A DNA stretch of 64,000 bases from Stachybotrys elegans (taxonomy: Eukaryota > Ascomycota > Sordariomycetes > Hypocreales > Stachybotryaceae): NCBI GenBank assembly GCA_020746835.1, contig JAGPNK010000036.1, forward strand, positions 1 to 64,000, in the 5' to 3' direction. Under the pieces are notes generated by a model. It did no database searches. It had not been told where the DNA came from and saw only the letters and a program-made list of their open reading frames with translations. Position numbers and translations under genes: made by a program. Positions 1 to 57,398 of the stretch are shown in pieces (the stretch's first letter is position 1; each line of letters starts with the position of its first letter).

Positions 1-799
1 ACTAGCTTTAACGCCGCCTGTTTGCTTCTACTGGTGACAAGTATAGATCCATGTTGGCAATGAGGAAGGTATGAAATGAGTGGCTGGCTCTGGCTCTGGC
101 TGTCTAAGCCATCTTGCTCGTTGCTGTAATCGGCTGGATTGTGGAGAAGAAAGCCGGCAGTATCGACATTATCGAGTATGAGGACCCATTTCCCACTCTT
201 TTCGCCCCGCAGCCAGTTGTATAGCAGCTTGAAAACATTGGTCTGAGGATTTTGCCGTCCGGGCAGCTTGAGGAAGTCGGCAATATCTTGGAAACTCTGC
301 TTGTAACGGGCTATACTGCTCGCGTGAACCCAGAAAACCCAAGTCTCGGGCGATCGGCCTCGGATTCGGTAGGCATATTCGATGGCAATCTGTGACTTCC
401 CGACTCCGCCTAGGCCGACGAGGGCAGTTCGTGAGGCTGGCTGACTGCATAAGTTGTGAACCTGATCGAGGATTTTATCCCGGTCGACGAAATCTCGATC
501 CTGGGGGAAAGGAAGGACGGCCGACGGCCTCGGTGGGGTTTCTGGTCGTTCGGGTTGTTCTGGGTTGAGTCTGGCGTTAGCAACCGGAGCGCTATCATGA
601 AGCATCGGGCGCAAAACTAGTAGTTGCTAGAGGTTTTCCTCCTGTGTACTTCTCTTTTCTCTCTTTCTCTTGGAGGGAACTCACGGTTCAGATGAAGGTC
701 CCCTTGAACGATACCCTGGAACAAGCGGCTGCCATCGCTCGCCACAGTGTGGCCAAACTGCTGGCTTACTGCCTGTCGCTCCCGCGAAGACTCTGACAT
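1..799 (-). CDS. NB-ARC NLR (STAND receptor), 3' end outside window
   Basis: Exon 1 is 799..685 and exon 2 runs from 616 off the left edge; the 68-bp intron (684..617) has a GTGAGT donor and CTACTAG acceptor, and splicing restores one frame. About 243 residues are visible. Residues 15-29 form an F-G-x7-S-x3-Q-G segment. It is followed by a Pro-rich linker, the NB-ARC entry motif FVDRDKIL (81-88), the P-loop GLGGVGKS (106-113), a Walker B (KWVLILDNVD) and a sensor-like ILVTSRSK. Fungal NLRs of this type bind ATP/dATP, oligomerise, and usually carry C-terminal TPR or WD repeats, which would lie outside the window. There is no enzymatic N-terminal effector domain; the short motif region sits where amyloid-signalling motifs occur in other NLRs. 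It is divergently paired with the protein at 1126, which carries the same motif. NB-ARC assignment is strong; the signalling role is inferred. Confidence 0.85.
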
Positions 800-1125
800 G
801 GTCGACAGCGCCCGATAAGTGGGCCAGTGCGTAGTGGGGTTTGGCTTGGGATATTTTGACTTCCGTCTTCAGTCGCGATACTTATGCTCAGGGTCTTTAG
901 TCTGGAAAGAAATTGCCTCTGAAGACAGGTTTATGGGAAATCGGGTCCTTGGAGCCTCATGCTGACAGTCATCTCGAGAGGGGAAAATCACGTGTTCCTC
1001 ATACCGTCGAATCAGAATGACTGAGGGGTTTGCGGCTGAGTCTCTATCCCTTAACTACGATCAAGATACAAAACAATCTGGACACTTGCGGTATGGCCAC
1101 AGCCGACAGACCCTAGTTAAATACC
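800..1125. promoter_or_regulatory. Divergent intergenic region, NLR / HeLo-like gene
   Basis: This 326-bp stretch separates the start codons of the two head-to-head genes and must hold both promoters. I see no convincing TATA box. The small overlapping reading frames here have no coding character. Confidence 0.5.
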
Positions 1126-1996
1126 ATGGATTCATTAAGTGTCACAGCGAGTGTGATTGCTGTTGCAGGCCTGGCGACGCAAAGCGCAAAAGCCATTTAC
1201 AAGCTGGTCGATGGCTTGGTCGAGGCACCACAAGCTATTGCCAACTCAAAGACTCTCCTCGCAGGGACACAAAGCTCCTTGGACACCCTTACGGGAGCAT
1301 TGGCGACTAAAGGGGACATGCAGGCCGGGTTTGCCTCGGTTTTGCAAACTATCAACCTCCACGGGGTGTTACTCTCGACTCAAGACCTCTGCGACAGGTT
1401 CAAAACAACAATTACAAATTATACGAGCCACTCTACGGAGTCAAGATTCAGTAACCGTGATAGGTTCCTAGTGAACTTGCACGAGTCACAAATCGTCCAA
1501 TTCAATGACCAATTAAGCGGTTGTCAGAGAACCATCACGTTGGTTGTAGGGGCAATTACATTGTGAGTTTTACACATGATAACAGTACTGAGCCATCCTA
1601 ATAAGATCAATTACATCTAGGATCATGTCTCATAGTACCTCGAATCACGTTCAACAATTAAGCACACGGTTTCAAGCTCAGGAACAGGCTTTATCCACTT
1701 TAGCCACGGAGCTATCAAAGAAAGCCAACGTTGAAGAGGACCAGGCCGTCTCTCGGCGATTTACGATATTGCAAGAAGCCTGCATGGAGGCTCTTCGAGC
1801 AACGAAAGCCGAGCGAACCGGTCAAACATTTGGAGACATGCAGATCGATCAGTCTTCCGGCGGTATGCAGGGGATCGTTGGTGAGGCTCAAAGGGGTATC
1901 AATCAGTCCTTTGGAAACCTGCTGGCGCAAAACAACAGCAAAGCATTCCAAGGCCAGATGGATGCGGCATCCTTCGCTCTCATGTTTGGAAAATAG
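1126..1996 (+). CDS. Fungal N-terminal (HeLo-like) domain protein with two C-terminal amyloid-type motifs
   Basis: Exons 1126..1562 and 1621..1996 (58-bp intron, GTGAGT...CTAG) give 270 aa. The N-terminus (MDSLSVTASVIAVAGLATQS) is the hydrophobic first helix typical of fungal N-terminal/HeLo-like domains, and an all-helical region extends to about residue 210. The last 60 residues hold two copies of F-G-x7-S-x3-Q-G, at 216-230 and 243-257. The same pattern occurs in the neighbouring NLR at residues 15-29, where QGIV after the conserved Ser is identical to the first copy. In characterised fungal pairs (HET-S/NWD2, HELLP/PNT1) an NLR N-terminal motif templates amyloid folding of matching effector motifs, and the HeLo-type domain then permeabilises membranes. 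That role is inferred from arrangement. The domain family may also act as a non-toxic adaptor. Confidence 0.78.
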
Positions 1997-2371
1997 GGAT
2001 GGGGCAAGAGGGGTACCAGGCGGTTAGAGCAGGAGGAAGACTCCTAAGGCCCAGCGTTTCGGTGTGATAAGCAGAGAAGGTGTTGGCCAGACTTCATAGA
2101 TATATTGTTTACCGCCGTGCCTTGCTCAAGTTTTTGTCTTTGATGAACGAGGTCTTGGGTTCGGCTGCCAAGCAACTTAAAGAATCGCTGCGTTTGCTGC
2201 AAGCCAGCCTCCATAGGCAGCCATCGACACAAGGATCGAGGAGCATTGGATATTGAATTATATTGACTCTCCTCGCAAACTATTGTCTGATTAATCCAAG
2301 AGAAATGTCTATTGTCTATTTATACAATCTCGTTAAATCGTCAATGCTTCTACAGTTGAGAGAACAAAAGA
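1997..2371. other. Intergenic between convergent genes
   Basis: The stretch lies between the 3' ends of the HeLo-like gene and the metallopeptidase-like gene. Its right part (about 2260-2350) is AT-rich, as expected for 3' UTR and polyadenylation sequence. No gene is seen. Confidence 0.5.
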
Positions 2372-3531
2372 CTACAACATGATGCTGAGAACAGTTCCCA
2401 GCATCAACACGGGAAGTGCTCCAATAAATGTACGCGGTGCCGCTGAGCCAGAGTCACCACCGCCATTCCCACCTTCGTTGTTGTTGTCGTCATTGCTCTC
2501 GCTTTCACAAGGCCCAGCCTGCCCGTCGCGGATGCACCAGACCTCGGAAGGCTCCAGCTTCGTCTGGAGGCTGCAAGTCCGCTCGGGATCATAGGTCAGG
2601 TAGTCCTCCAGCTGCTCCGTCATGACGGCGGCGGTGCTGGACATGCACGAATCGTCCGCCAGCTCGTCTACTGGGCCGACGTTGAACTCGTACGCGAGCA
2701 TAACGGCGGCTTGAGCATAGAGTTCGGAATAGGCTGGTGAGTTGTTAGCCTCGTGACGAGGATAAGCATCAGAGGAGCACTTACATGTCTTGGAGTAGTA
2801 ATCGGAGACACAAGTGTCATTTTCCACAACATCGATGAATTCCTGCGTCTCTGCATACGACACCTCGGAGCCTTCCGGCCTGACATGCCAGTCGAGGTTG
2901 TGCGCAATTTCATGCACAAACAGAGCAACTGTTGACCAGAGTCCGTAGATGACGAGATCTCCAACCCAGTAAAGCGAAACGCCCTCTAGACTGCTGTTGC
3001 TTGTTGGCGTGACATAGTCGTCACTCAAGACAACGTGTCGAACAAGCTCTCTGGATGCAACAGGAATTCGACTGTTGGCATTCCTCAGTTAGCCATTGAC
3101 AAAAATGGAAAGAAAAAAAAGAGGGATACTGACCCAAAGTCTTCAATGACCTGCTGAAAGTTGTCGTCGGCATCGTGGCATCGGCAAAAGATCCATGGCT
3201 GGCGGCAGTCTTCGTAGGTGACGTTGTACACCTCCAAGCGGTCAAAGGAGCAGTTTCCGGCCACCAACTCGCGGTCTTGTGAGATTTCAGCACATGCTTG
3301 AGGGATCAAGCCCGCCTCCCAACGGCGGACGTTGCTTGGAGTCACTGTGAGGTTTCCGAGGCCGGCTTGCTCGAGGACAATGTTGCCCTCGTCGGGGAAG
3401 ATCTCGTCCAGGTCCTGGTCGGGGACGGGCTGATCCTCTCTGGCGATGAGGGAGTGAGGGTGTTGAGGGTTGCGACTGAGGAGGGGGAGCAGGCAGGTCA
3501 GGCCCTGGGCAGCAGCTTTTGCAGCACGCAT
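2372..3531 (-). CDS. Secreted, probably GPI-anchored HExxH metallopeptidase-like protein
   Basis: Model: exons 3531..3134, 3071..2785 and 2733..2372, 348 aa. Intron 2 (2784..2734, 51 bp, GTAAGT, GCTAAC branch, CACCAG) is a multiple of three without a stop, so an unspliced form would also be open. The start MRAAKAAAQG precedes a hydrophobic LTCLLPLL segment, a plausible signal peptide; the frame is open upstream but looks non-coding. Residues 186-195 read HEIAHNLDWH, a zinc-metallopeptidase HExxH followed by another His. Several Cys suggest disulfides. The C-terminus has a Gly/Ser/Asn-rich linker and a hydrophobic tail, the layout of a GPI signal. Substrate is unknown and activity is inferred from the motif only. 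Confidence 0.72.
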
Positions 3532-4979
3532 GTTGTCTTTCTGTGGTGGGATGAGTTGGAGGATTATCGGGAGGACTTGGATAAGACTGGATACTGGCTG
3601 ATCACAAAATTGCGAAATGGAGCTGGCTGCAGAGCCAGCTATAAGGCTGGAGCGGTGGAGTCTAGGCCGACGATGCCTGGGGTTGAAATGCACCCTTAAT
3701 TTCCACAGCCCCCGGCTCTATTGGAACGACCGGGTATTAATAGCATCGCCTGGGCGCGGATCTCCTCAGCGTCTTGGCGACCAAGCCCGACTGAGTGCTA
3801 AGAACACTGCCACGTAGGGGGGCCTGATCTCCTGCCTGGCATTTCTGTCCAACCAGAGGCCACTGTCGTCTTGGTGCGAGAGCGAGCTGGTCGATTCTGG
3901 GGCAAGCAGGGCTAGTCTTGATGATGGTGCTGTGGTTCACGCGCTGGGCAAAGACAACAGGCAAGGTATGTAGGGTGCCTATTTTGAGGATGCATGGACG
4001 GAAGGAAGAGACGATGCCAGGCCTGGATGAACCAAGTCTCGAGTATTCAGGCCACTTGGGACACATGAGAGCCCCAAGGGGATTTGCCCTAGCGCATGTC
4101 CAGCAACAGGCTCCAGGAGGTGGCTTTGCAGCTGAGGCTGAATAGAGCCATTGGGCTTTTCGTCCCATTATCCCCTGTGCAAATGGATGCACACGGCAGA
4201 ACAAATCCCGGGGTGGAGTCGGGACAGAAACCCTGTTCTGGAAGCTCGATGCGATGAAGTTTTTTTGCATGATCCATTTCATTAGCAAGGTTACGGGGAT
4301 CATGTTGACAATCGCTTTCTCGCATTCGTTCTTTTTTTTTCTTTCTCGCTTATTTTTATTTTGTCTTAGATCAAAACCTACAAAATAAATAAGCAACAAG
4401 TATCTACTGTGCTTAGCGGTTGGTGATGAGAGCGACGTCAAGACATTGTCAATTGAACAGTCTGCCCACTACAAGGCTGATAGATTGCTCAACTACGGGA
4501 TTTCCGAGGGGCGCAGCACCTCCCAAGGCCGCGGCTCTCTGGCATTGATCGCTGTTCATTACCCCAGCAGATATGTATGGAGTAAAGATGCATATCTTGT
4601 TTCACAATACATCCTCCTGTCAGCATGTACTGAAACCTGCTTACATGCGCCCACATTCGCTGTCCTTGTACATTGCAATTACGTGATTTCTTACTCGTCT
4701 TTCCAACGGCATCTACTGTGAGGCAGCAGTCCATAGTAGAGCGATTAGCTGGGACCGTTGTTAGGGTGGCGCATTTTAGTAGCGAATGGGTCGACCAAGC
4801 CATAGTTCTTGGTCTCGGAGCTCCGAGCTGTTTCCATGGGGTAGTGGCGGGGAGGGAAAAAATCATCGTCGTCACATCAACATCAGCTGATAAAAGAATA
4901 AATAAAATCAAGGACAAGAACCACAGGGCGGACGACTGAGCAAGTACAAATACGCTCTGTCATACGAGTCGAAGCGACG
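3532..4979. other. 1.45-kb intergenic region without a convincing gene
   Basis: It lies between two divergently transcribed genes. A 234-codon minus frame (4441..3737) begins inside an A/T- and Lys/Arg-rich tract and has no domain, signal peptide or splice partner, so I treat it as chance. A T-rich run lies at about 4330-4365. No RNA gene is recognised. Confidence 0.5.
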
Positions 4980-6564
4980 ATGGAGTCCGAGTCGGAGCCA
5001 AGACGGAGCCTTGGCTGGCGCTGTCTTGCCAATCTGGCCGACCACGCCGGCGTCGCGTCGGTATATCAATCGTCGCTCGACGTGAAGCTACTCATCATGC
5101 AGCGCTTTACGCGCATGTTTGCCTACGGCGCATCGACCCTCGTGCTGGTCTCGTTTCTGCGCGCACTCGACATTTCCGAGACCAAAATCGGCCTCTTCAT
5201 GACTCTGACCCTCGTTGGAGACATCGTCATCAGCTTTGTCCTCGCATGCTACGCCGACGCCATGGGTCGGAGGCTGACGCTGCTCATCGGATCCGCCCTA
5301 TTGATTGCCAGCGGAGTAGTCTTTGCCCTGTCCAGCTCGTACTGGGTGTTGCTCGTTGCGGCCATTGTGGGCGTCATAAGCCCGAGGTAAGCAACAGGAT
5401 ACATGTATGCTGAGGATATCAAAGCAGATGCCACTAACATGAATCAGTGGCAACGAAATTGGTCCCTTTCGAGCTGTCGAGGAAAGCACCATCGCCCAAC
5501 TGACAGCGGCCCAGCAACGAGGTGACGTATACGCTTGGTATACACTTTGTGGGAGTGCAGGTGCGGCATTCGGCACCATGGTGAGCGGATGGGCGATTCA
5601 AGCCGCCCTTGCCAAGTTGGACTGGCAGGTTGTCGACATATACCGCCTGGTCTTCTACGGATACTCTGGTATCGGCGTGGTCAAGACGCTTCTGACGTTG
5701 ATGTTGAGCCCTGCCGTGGAATCAGAAAAAAGACGAAAAGCCCAAGCCAAAAGCAACCCCGGACGTCCGGCAGAGGAGGAGCCTCTCTTGCCCTCGAACC
5801 AAGAATCTTCCGAGACTCCGGATGGCGGAGCGACAGCTTCTACTTTAAGCAGCAGTGGTAGAAAAATCTTGATATGCCTGTGCTTGCTCTTTGGCTTGGA
5901 CAGTCTCGGATCAGGCTTGGTTCCCCTGTGAGCGCACTTCCCTTGGTTCAAAGTCGCATCGCAGTCGCTAACGAGAATGGCAGCTCATGGATCGTTCACT
6001 ACTTCAAATCACGCTTCAATCTTGTCGAGGGAAGCCTTGGGTCCATCTTCTTTGTCACGCATATCATCGCGGCTGGGTCTACACTCGTCGCGTCCTCCCT
6101 GGCCAAGCGCCTGGGCAACGTTCCAGTACGTTTGATCCAAATGACTAAATAACACGCTTCGTATGCTAACATGTCCAAAGACAATGGTCTTTACCCATAT
6201 ACCCTCGTCGGTATTTTTGGCCCTGATTCCGGTCCCGAGTGAGCTTCACTGGGCATTGACCTTGTTGATTCTGCGGTCATGCATCCAGTCAATGGACGTG
6301 GCTCCGCGGTCGGCTTTCCTGGCGGCGATTCTCGACCCAGCGGAGCGGACCATGAGTTTGGGGCTGGTCAAGGTTGTGCAAACTACAGCTCAGAGCATCG
6401 GTCCCTTGATCACGGGCTTCCTGGTGGAGCACAATTACTTTTGGGTGTCTTTTCTATGCGCCGGATGTCTGAAGATAACCTACGATCTTGGGCTGTTGGC
6501 ATTGTTTAAGAACGCAGAGCATGGCAACAGAGGTAGAAACCGTGCCGGGGAAGACGGCGAGTAG
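4980..6564 (+). CDS. Major facilitator superfamily transporter
   Basis: Exons 4980..5386, 5448..5927, 5984..6125 and 6181..6564 yield 470 aa; all three introns (61, 56, 55 bp) are GT-AG and phase-consistent. The N-terminal half shows successive hydrophobic helices with the MFS loop 2-3 signature around YADAMGRRLTLLIG. A charged cytoplasmic loop rich in Lys, Pro and Glu (EKRRKAQAKS, EEEPLLPSNQ) separates it from a second set of helices, giving the usual 12-helix layout. The C-terminus is short and hydrophilic. The N-terminal residues (about 1-35) are soluble. The substrate cannot be read from sequence. It may be a plasma-membrane or vacuolar proton-coupled porter; the acidic dileucine-like EEPLLP in the loop would suit a vacuolar or endosomal location, which is speculative. 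Confidence 0.88.
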
Positions 6565-24613: not shown

Positions 24614-25565
24614 ATGGGTTTCTTCGCCCACGCCATTTTTGCCGCGCAACCGGGAAAACTTGTCTACGACCACGAGACCGTCAAGTGCGTGGTTGGGAAG
24701 CCCGAGGCTCCCGCGCCGGAACGTTTCCTCGAGAAACTCAAGCTCGCCTTCGACCAGCGTCCCGACACCACCAACGAGCAGCATCGCTGCATCGTCATCA
24801 CCGTCATTCACCCCTTTCAGGTCTGGAACGGTGTTTGTTTTGGAGAGCCATTCTTCAATACCCAGCGAGTTGTTGAGGGAGGCATTGTCCGTCATTGCCA
24901 ACTCGCCGTCGAAGCCGAACTTGGCAATATCCAGGACATTGTCCGTCATTGCCATCTCGCCGTCGAAGCCGAACTTGGCAATATCCAGGACATTGTCCAT
25001 CATTGCGGACAGCGCTGGTACGAGATCGACTCCGCAAAGGCTGTGCTTGTTAGGGGGCAGGACCTTCGTCATCTGGAGTCTCTTGTCGAATCTGGTCTCA
25101 TCGAGGCGATCGACGACCGTTTCGGTTACGAGGTCGGGGTTCAGCCCGGACTGCCCGGCGGCTGGCAAGGTGATCAGTTTGCCCCCCTGTGCACCTACGC
25201 AGTCGAACTTGTCAACATTGTTGCCTCTGTTGTTCACTGCGTCTTTGACGAGGCTGTGCACCACTTGAACTTGGCCGAAGGAAGCGATCCTCAGCACAAG
25301 GCAGGAAGCGGAACGATCCGTGCCCTGTGAAACTTCGAGGCCAACCCAGTCGTCTTTGCCTGGGATGGAGAACAACCCGCCCCCGGGGTGGCATTGCGTA
25401 AGTCTCTTCCTCTGATGGCTGGCAATTTTGATGCTTGCCTGAACGGCAAAAACACATGCTGATCCTCCACGCCAGCGTTGCGATCCTCCCCGACGATACG
25501 ACTATGCTATTGAGAGATGCAGAGGGTGCGACACATCGCGATACGATGCTGATGGCACCACAATA
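24614..25565 (+). pseudogene. Interrupted unknown gene with internal 54-bp duplication
   Basis: A 238-codon frame (24614..25330) has coding-type codon use (for example ERFLEKLKLAFDQRPDTT) and stops at TGA 25328-25330. Beyond the stop the same frame continues with NFEANPVVFAWDGEQP to a strong GTAAGT donor near 25398. A downstream exon after CACGCCAG (about 25477) would read DDTTMLLRDAEGATHRD and end at TAA near 25565, but its phase is one base off. So there is one nonsense codon and one frame break. The middle carries a 54-bp tandem duplication. The family is not recognised. It lies directly after the STAND gene on the same strand. The 24614-25330 part might still be expressed as a truncated protein. 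Confidence 0.5.
24887..25014 (+). repeat. 54-bp tandem duplication (about 2.4 copies)
   Basis: A 54-bp unit starting CATTGTCCGTCATTGCCA is repeated with one mismatch, and a partial third copy follows. The unit length keeps the frame, so the protein repeats an 18-residue block ending ELGNIQD. Near-identity of the copies points to a recent duplication. Confidence 0.9.

Positions 25566-55041: not shown

Positions 55042-57398
<2,357 letters not shown>

What the first reader, a model, noticed from the sequence alone, without database searches (positions are those of the whole stretch)
1..1996. Divergent NLR/effector pair sharing an exact F-G-x7-S-x3-Q-G motif
The NLR (minus) and the HeLo-like protein (plus) are head-to-head with 326 bp between starts. 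The NLR has one copy of the 15-residue pattern at its extreme N-terminus (residues 15-29). The partner has two at its C-terminus (216-230, 243-257). Copy 1 and the NLR also share QGIV. In known fungal systems such linked receptor/effector motifs template functional amyloids that trigger cell death. Whether this motif falls in the sigma class or a new one cannot be told from memory.
Basis: partly seen in the sequence, partly recalled or inferred. Interest (0 to 1): 0.86.

Follow-up and report, generated by a model that had tools for sequence, protein, structure and literature searches.

The report
Fungal HELLF-type amyloid death-switch gene pair
In the mould Stachybotrys elegans, a sensor gene and a cell-suicide gene sit head to head and share a short repeated motif that closely matches one already shown in another fungus to pass an amyloid (prion-like) death signal, so this looks like a new example of a known system.

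Summary
The effector model (270 aa) equals the deposited Stachybotrys elegans protein B0I35DRAFT_472337; the NLR is cut by the contig end. The architecture is that of FNT1/HELLF: two repeats on a HeLo-like protein, one on the adjacent NLR. So the motif is neither sigma nor a new class but a HELLF-type HET-s-related motif. S. elegans has a second head-to-head pair, with a broken NLR frame, and a relic. Outside S. elegans, 12 receptor-effector pairs were matched, 7 by consecutive locus tags and 5 by equal contig length. Most likely the triggered NLR forms an amyloid seed that converts the effector tail and frees its membrane-killing domain; the functional steps are inferred. Oddities: the window's first repeat has glycine where the 37 other members have alanine, and the pair groups with Xylariales, though lateral transfer is not shown. 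New member of a known kind.

The parts
1..616 (-). NLR exon 2 (part): linker and start of the NB-ARC-type STAND NTPase with P-loop GLGGVGKS; runs off the contig end
   Evidence: (NB-ARC 18.5 bits, below its 23.5 cut-off; AAA_16 20.5 bits, below its 32.6 cut-off)
617..684 (-). NLR intron 1 (GTGAGT...TAG, 68 bp); exon boundary inferred from frame
   Evidence: the C22 paralogue also has the R0 exon split off and the deposited model P0051 splices after the same LHLN
685..799 (-). NLR exon 1, 38 aa plus one base
713..757 (-). R0 motif FGHTVASDGSRLFQG, NLR residues 15-29
800..1125 (.). 326-bp intergenic region between the two divergent start codons
   Evidence: coordinates; window 1-2049 aligns at 74.5% to the paralogous pair on C22
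1126..1562 (+). HeLo-like effector exon 1 (most of the HeLo-like domain, Pfam PF17111)
1563..1620 (+). effector intron (GTGAGT...TAG, 58 bp)
1621..1996 (+). effector exon 2 with the C-terminal prion-forming domain and the stop codon
1829..1873 (+). R1 motif FGDMQIDQSSGGMQG, effector residues 216-230; one residue longer than in 19 of 38 members, with G where the 37 other members have A
1910..1954 (+). R2 motif FGNLLAQNNSKAFQG, effector residues 243-257
1955..1993 (+). C-terminal aromatic tail QMDAASFALMFGK, aligned to the end of 6EKA's matched stretch

Best explanation
This is the Stachybotrys elegans member of the FNT1/HELLF amyloid cell-death system. Steps: (1) the NLR senses an unknown cue through its C-terminal repeats and oligomerises (inferred from the family; the repeats are off the contig). 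(2) Oligomerisation clusters the N-terminal R0 motif, which folds as a beta-solenoid rung (inferred from FNT1 and HELLF). (3) R0 templates the R1 and R2 repeats of the adjacent gene's protein, which convert to the same two-rung beta-solenoid amyloid (inferred by homology to 6EKA). [quoted passage not shown] Shown here: the gene pair, the three motif copies, homology to the solved amyloid, conservation, and linkage in relatives. The functional steps are inferred.
For: Effector residues 201-270 align without gaps to residues 1-70 of the 78-residue chain 6EKA_A, E 1e-18, 41 of 70 identical; the family profile gives E 1.2e-29. The 6EKA stretch itself holds F-G-x7-S-x3-Q-G twice. [quoted passage not shown] FNT1 is the adjacent NB-ARC/TPR NLR with an N-terminal R0 that forms fibrils and induces [Phi]; HELLF then relocates to the membrane region and causes death (PMC7885112 passages). 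HeLo-like domain PF17111, E 8e-17. The repeats are more conserved than the rest: mean pairwise identity R1 0.66, R2 0.59, HeLo-like part 0.50, middle 0.41 over all 43 aligned members; 0.76, 0.69, 0.54, 0.45 over the 36 picked by the motif (a pick that favours the motif). An HMM made only from other species' effector repeats ranks 16 R0-bearing NLRs first among 141 sequences, the window NLR third (E 0.0041); in 15 of the 16 the best stretch lies at residues 9-32, in P0076 at 249-257; 3 of the 19 R0-bearing sequences were not found at E up to 10. The second pair in S. elegans is also head to head.
Against: No fibril, prion or cell-death result for these proteins was seen. R1 of the window copy departs from the family at a core position, so it may template poorly. 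Within 13 linked pairs, R0 is no more like its own partner's R2 than like others' (identity sum 107 against a permuted mean of 107.2, p 0.63). The HMM matches in NLRs are individually weak (best E 0.0011). The NLR is incomplete, and its NB-ARC score is below the Pfam cut-off.
Confidence: 0.9

Rival explanations
1. The pair descends from an FNT1/HELLF system but is decaying in S. elegans: the window effector's R1 is damaged and its sister pair's NLR is broken, so little or no signal passes.
For: R1 of the window effector is three bases longer than that of the C22 copy and has G where the 37 other members have A. The C22 NLR reading frame is broken about 260 residues in. A third copy on C46 is a relic with an in-frame stop.
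Against: The window effector is open along its whole length, and R2, the tail and R0 keep the family pattern. No dN/dS test was run.
Confidence: 0.15
2. The shared motif belongs to another amyloid class (sigma, PP or PUASM) or to an undescribed one.
For: The Pfam model of the canonical HET-s tail is not among the matches of the window effector.
Against: Direct homology to 6EKA. No sigma Pfam family is among the matches of the effector at E up to 10 (HMMER's filters drop most matches above about 0.1) or of NLR exon 1 at E up to 1. PP and PUASM core patterns are absent from both proteins. Only 38 of 155 HRAM proteins matched the HET-s Pfam model in the founding survey.
Confidence: 0.03
3. Chance or low-complexity resemblance between two neighbouring genes.
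For: The motif is short; individual HMM scores in the NLRs are weak.
Against: Shuffles 107 and 52 of 200000; recurrence in a second pair and in 12 matched pairs outside S. elegans, one of which has a short effector model without the repeats.
Confidence: 0.01

Closest known systems
FNT1/HELLF of Podospora anserina (HELLF tail, by inference PDB 6EKA; prion [Phi])
   Same: HeLo-like effector of nearly the same length (270 vs 277 aa), two tail repeats with the same F-G-x7-S-x3-Q-G spacing, aromatic tail, one R0 on the adjacent NLR, NB-ARC plus TPR (TPR seen only in the C22 paralogue)
   Different: 41 of 70 identical in the tail; R1 of the window copy differs at a core position; S. elegans has two pairs and a relic
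NWD2/HET-S (canonical HET-s, HRAM1, Pfam PF11558)
   Same: Two repeats in the effector, one in the NLR, conserved glycine, same overall logic
   Different: HeLo-like instead of HeLo domain; NB-ARC instead of NACHT; glutamine before the glycine; no match of the window effector to the HET-s Pfam model; [Phi] and [Het-s] do not cross-seed in P. anserina
HRAM4 example pair of Pestalotiopsis fici (W3WR35/W3WR59, named in PMC5485727)
   Same: P. fici also has two effectors of the present family (PFICI_10698, PFICI_11740), one next to an R0-bearing NLR (PFICI_10699)
   Different: The UniProt codes could not be mapped to these locus tags, and HRAM4/HRAM5 labels differ between papers
PNT1/HELLP (PP motif)
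   Same: NB-ARC/TPR NLR plus HeLo-like effector; many NLRs with related NB-ARC carry a PP-like N-terminus
   Different: PP core absent here

Membership tests
HELLF/FNT1-type HET-s-related amyloid motif system | HeLo-like N-terminal domain in the effector | tested here: met
   PF17111, E 8e-17
HELLF/FNT1-type HET-s-related amyloid motif system | Two ~21-residue pseudo-repeats at the effector C-terminus, homologous to the HELLF tail | tested here: met
   6EKA, E 1e-18, 41 of 70 identical; that 6EKA is HELLF is inferred
HELLF/FNT1-type HET-s-related amyloid motif system | One R0 repeat at the N-terminus of the adjacent NLR | tested here: met
   residues 15-29; found by an HMM of other species' effector repeats, E 0.0041 among 141 sequences
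HELLF/FNT1-type HET-s-related amyloid motif system | NLR with NB-ARC and TPR repeats | tested here: inconclusive
   Window copy cut by contig end, NB-ARC 18.5 bits, below cut-off; the C22 paralogue has strong TPR and a weak NB-ARC match
HELLF/FNT1-type HET-s-related amyloid motif system | Receptor and effector genes adjacent | tested here: met
   Window, C22, and 7 consecutive-tag pairs outside S. elegans
HELLF/FNT1-type HET-s-related amyloid motif system | HRAM residue pattern: G19; hydrophobic 5, 8, 10, 16, 18; R or K preferred at 15 | tested here: inconclusive
   Counted by hand from the numbering: G19, F5, Q3 and Q18 in all three copies (Q18 as in HRAM4); R or K at 15 in R0 and R2; R1 has G at 15 and 16; R0 has T at 8
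HELLF/FNT1-type HET-s-related amyloid motif system | Tail forms a beta-solenoid amyloid and prion; triggers membrane relocation and death | not testable with these tools
   Needs fibrils and cells; structure prediction switched off
Canonical HET-s (Pfam PF11558) | Match to the HET-s 218-289 model | tested here: not met
   The list for the effector at E up to 10 holds only PF17111 and DUF7897
Sigma motif | Match to the Pfam sigma families (names recalled: NACHT_sigma, Ses_B) | tested here: not met
   None for the effector at E up to 10, none for NLR exon 1 at E up to 1
PP motif | NxGxQxGxN core | tested here: not met
   Absent from the effector and from the window NLR's first 125 residues
PUASM | FxGxGxQxxGxGxF | tested here: not met
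   Absent from the same two sequences

The most novel reading that the evidence does not exclude
S. elegans carries two HELLF-type pairs whose tails have begun to part. The window effector's first repeat, with an extra residue and glycine in the core, may define a separate seeding specificity from the C22 pair, and the receptor-effector unit may have entered this Hypocreales lineage sideways from Xylariales-like fungi.
Probability: 0.15. Interest if true: 0.5.

Novelty: new member of a known kind. Interest (0 to 1): 0.3.

Why it matters
It extends an experimentally studied fungal amyloid cell-death pathway to a mycoparasitic mould (lifestyle recalled) and shows that the HELLF-type motif is well conserved and often pair-linked in Xylariales relatives. 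Two naturally diverged tails in one genome, differing in length and at one core position in repeat 1, offer a natural test of what sets cross-seeding barriers between signalling amyloids, a question that the HRAM papers raise and that is only partly answered.

Tried and rejected
Sigma, PP and PUASM were considered and rejected. A new motif class was rejected once 6EKA appeared. Cognate co-variation of R0 and R2 within the family was tested and not seen. Horizontal transfer: the effector tree (40 of the 49 effector hits, N-terminal part only; fungal orders other than that of S. elegans assigned from memory) puts both S. elegans copies in a supported 13-row set with 11 Xylariales. Holding them together with Purpureocillium, another Hypocreales member, is rejected (AU p 1.9e-46), but the 11 Xylariales without S. 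elegans are not rejected as a clade (p 0.435), so transfer is not separated from ancient paralogy and loss. The UniProt codes of the HRAM4 example could not be mapped. The original HELLF paper (DOI recalled) is not held. Searching with the tail alone gave 17 proteins of 26 candidates, all of them already in the list, so no other effector class (its reach was small, for it missed other known members). Alignment A1 held 43 of the 49 effector hits; six short or partial ones were left out. The contig-length matches were made by eye from the tables; 38 of the 158 NLR hits were not listed and not examined. In the NLR tree 8 of 120 NLRs were dropped for lack of the P-loop pattern. The conservation figures used members picked by the motif; one search repeats them without that pick.

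Full report
What is there. The window is the first 64 kb of contig C30 of a 43.4-Mb fungal genome. The effector on the plus strand (exons 1126-1562 and 1621-1996) is letter for letter the deposited Stachybotrys elegans protein B0I35DRAFT_472337, so the host is taken to be S. elegans (Hypocreales, Stachybotryaceae). On the minus strand, 326 bp away, an NLR starts at 799. Exon 1 encodes 38 residues with the motif, a 68-bp intron follows, and exon 2 carries the NTPase P-loop and runs off the contig. In 200000 shuffles each, one or more matches arose 107 times for the effector and 52 times for the NLR fragment.

What it is. The effector has a HeLo-like domain (PF17111, now named PigL_N in Pfam; E 8e-17). 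The PDB record is labelled Podospora anserina chromosome 3. That it is HELLF(209-277) is my inference from three facts: the hellf gene is Pa_3_9900, the tail is 209-277, and the HELLF structure shows five stacked subunits, while 6EKA has five chains. A review lists 6EKA among signalling amyloids. The papers describe HELLF as a HeLo-like protein of 277 aa next to fnt1, an NB-ARC/TPR NLR with an N-terminal R0. [quoted passage not shown]

Class label. In the 2015 numbering all three copies have Q3, F5, Q18 and G19 (residues counted by hand). The 2015 table lists P. anserina (1), Apiospora montagnei (2) and Pestalotiopsis fici (2) under HRAM4. A 2017 review gives a P. anserina pair (B2B1E9/A0A090CH31, not mapped here) as the HRAM5 example and a P. 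fici pair as HRAM4, and the 2021 papers call HELLF HRAM5. The homology, not the number, carries the assignment.

Conservation. The protein search gave 49 relatives. 38 of 49 have both repeats: 37 by the pattern, plus P0022, whose repeats lack the S. The other 11 are short or partial models, one Elaphomyces protein without recognisable repeats, and four distant Fusarium proteins with diverged ones. Mean pairwise identity over all 43 aligned members is 0.66 in R1 and 0.59 in R2, against 0.50 in the HeLo-like part and 0.41 in the middle. Residue 52, where a lysine change is named for a HELLF construct (its purpose is not stated in the passages I read, and the numbering may not carry over exactly), is leucine in 41 of 43.

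Linkage. A search with the N-terminus of the paralogous NLR gave 158 relatives, 120 listed. 18 of 120 carry R0 (17 with the exact pattern, one with D for G). One of the six is the S. elegans C22 pair, leaving 12 outside S. elegans; several of these come from one species, Apiospora arundinis. In PG985 the annotated effector model is short and lacks the repeats. One further R0-bearing NLR shares a contig length with an effector but is 720 tags away; four of the 18 have no listed effector partner. Of the 102 NLRs without R0, one shares a contig length with an effector, 101 tags away. An HMM from the repeats of 35 effectors (S. elegans left out) ranks 16 R0-bearing NLRs first among 141 sequences, 20 of them shuffles, the window NLR third; in one of the 16 (P0076) the best stretch is not at the N-terminus, and 3 of 19 R0-bearing sequences were missed.

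A second pair. G000:C22 holds a homologous head-to-head pair: effector P0006, and an NLR with R0 and TPR repeats. Window 1-2049 aligns to it at 74.5%. Its NLR frame is broken about 260 residues in; the deposited model P0051 has 820 aa. A fragment on C46 keeps the end of R1 and R2 with an in-frame stop.

Oddity in R1. The window copy's R1 is three bases longer than that of C22 and has glycine where the 37 other members with complete tails have alanine, at position 16, described as one of the hydrophobic positions. In length it matches the 19 of 38 members with the longer R1, HELLF's type among them. The glycine could weaken templating or shift its specificity; nothing here decides.

Results against. 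R0 and R2 of the same pair are not more alike than those of different pairs (13 pairs, p 0.63), so there is no fine-scale co-variation within this family beyond the shared class. No structure model could be made. Whether the window NLR is intact is unknown.

Evolution. The effector tree joins the two S. elegans copies with 11 Xylariales (98/95), while Purpureocillium, another Hypocreales member, lies far away with Apiosordaria (orders recalled); holding the S. elegans copies with Purpureocillium is rejected, but S. elegans outside the 11 Xylariales is not. The NLR tree is consistent: the window and C22 NLRs fall in the R0 set with Apiospora and Xylaria relatives, while the listed NLRs of other Stachybotrys species fall elsewhere (quick method). 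Transfer of the pair is possible, but ancient paralogy with loss is not excluded.

Verdict. It is a new species record of a known, experimentally studied system, with a duplicated pair and an unusual R1. In the literature searches made I saw no paper on this S. elegans pair; only the listed papers were seen, and (20 listed of 48) none of those listed holds the species name.

Noticed in passing
L071 (G000:C22:26000-35999), 2186-6502: A second, diverged copy of the whole pair, head to head; its NLR reading frame is broken about 260 residues in while the effector is open.
   Followed up: partly
L072 (G000:C46:31000-36382), 4596-4721 minus: Relic of a third effector tail (end of R1, then R2) with an in-frame stop, near the contig end.
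   Followed up: partly
NLR relatives P0066-P0170: Many NLRs with related NB-ARC domains carry a PP-like motif instead of R0 (62 of 102 by a loose pattern); two PP-like and one other fall inside the R0 set of the tree, which suggests that N-terminal amyloid motifs have been swapped (quick tree).
   Followed up: partly
P0047-P0050 (Fusarium, distant effectors): Homologous HeLo-like proteins whose two tail repeats keep Q3 and the glycine but have T or A instead of Q18; possibly the HRAM2 type, a bridge between classes.
   Followed up: no
window 56927-57103: Hexanucleotide array TCAGGC, 29.5 copies, 94% matches, with 18- and 36-base repeats just after it.
   Followed up: no
window 24883-25006: Tandem repeat of 54 bases, 2.3 copies at 97%, a multiple of three.
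   Followed up: no
Pfam PF17111: The HeLo-like N-terminal domain is now named PigL_N (pigment biosynthesis cluster protein), which seems to give these proteins the database name 'Azaphilone pigments biosyn...'.
   Followed up: no
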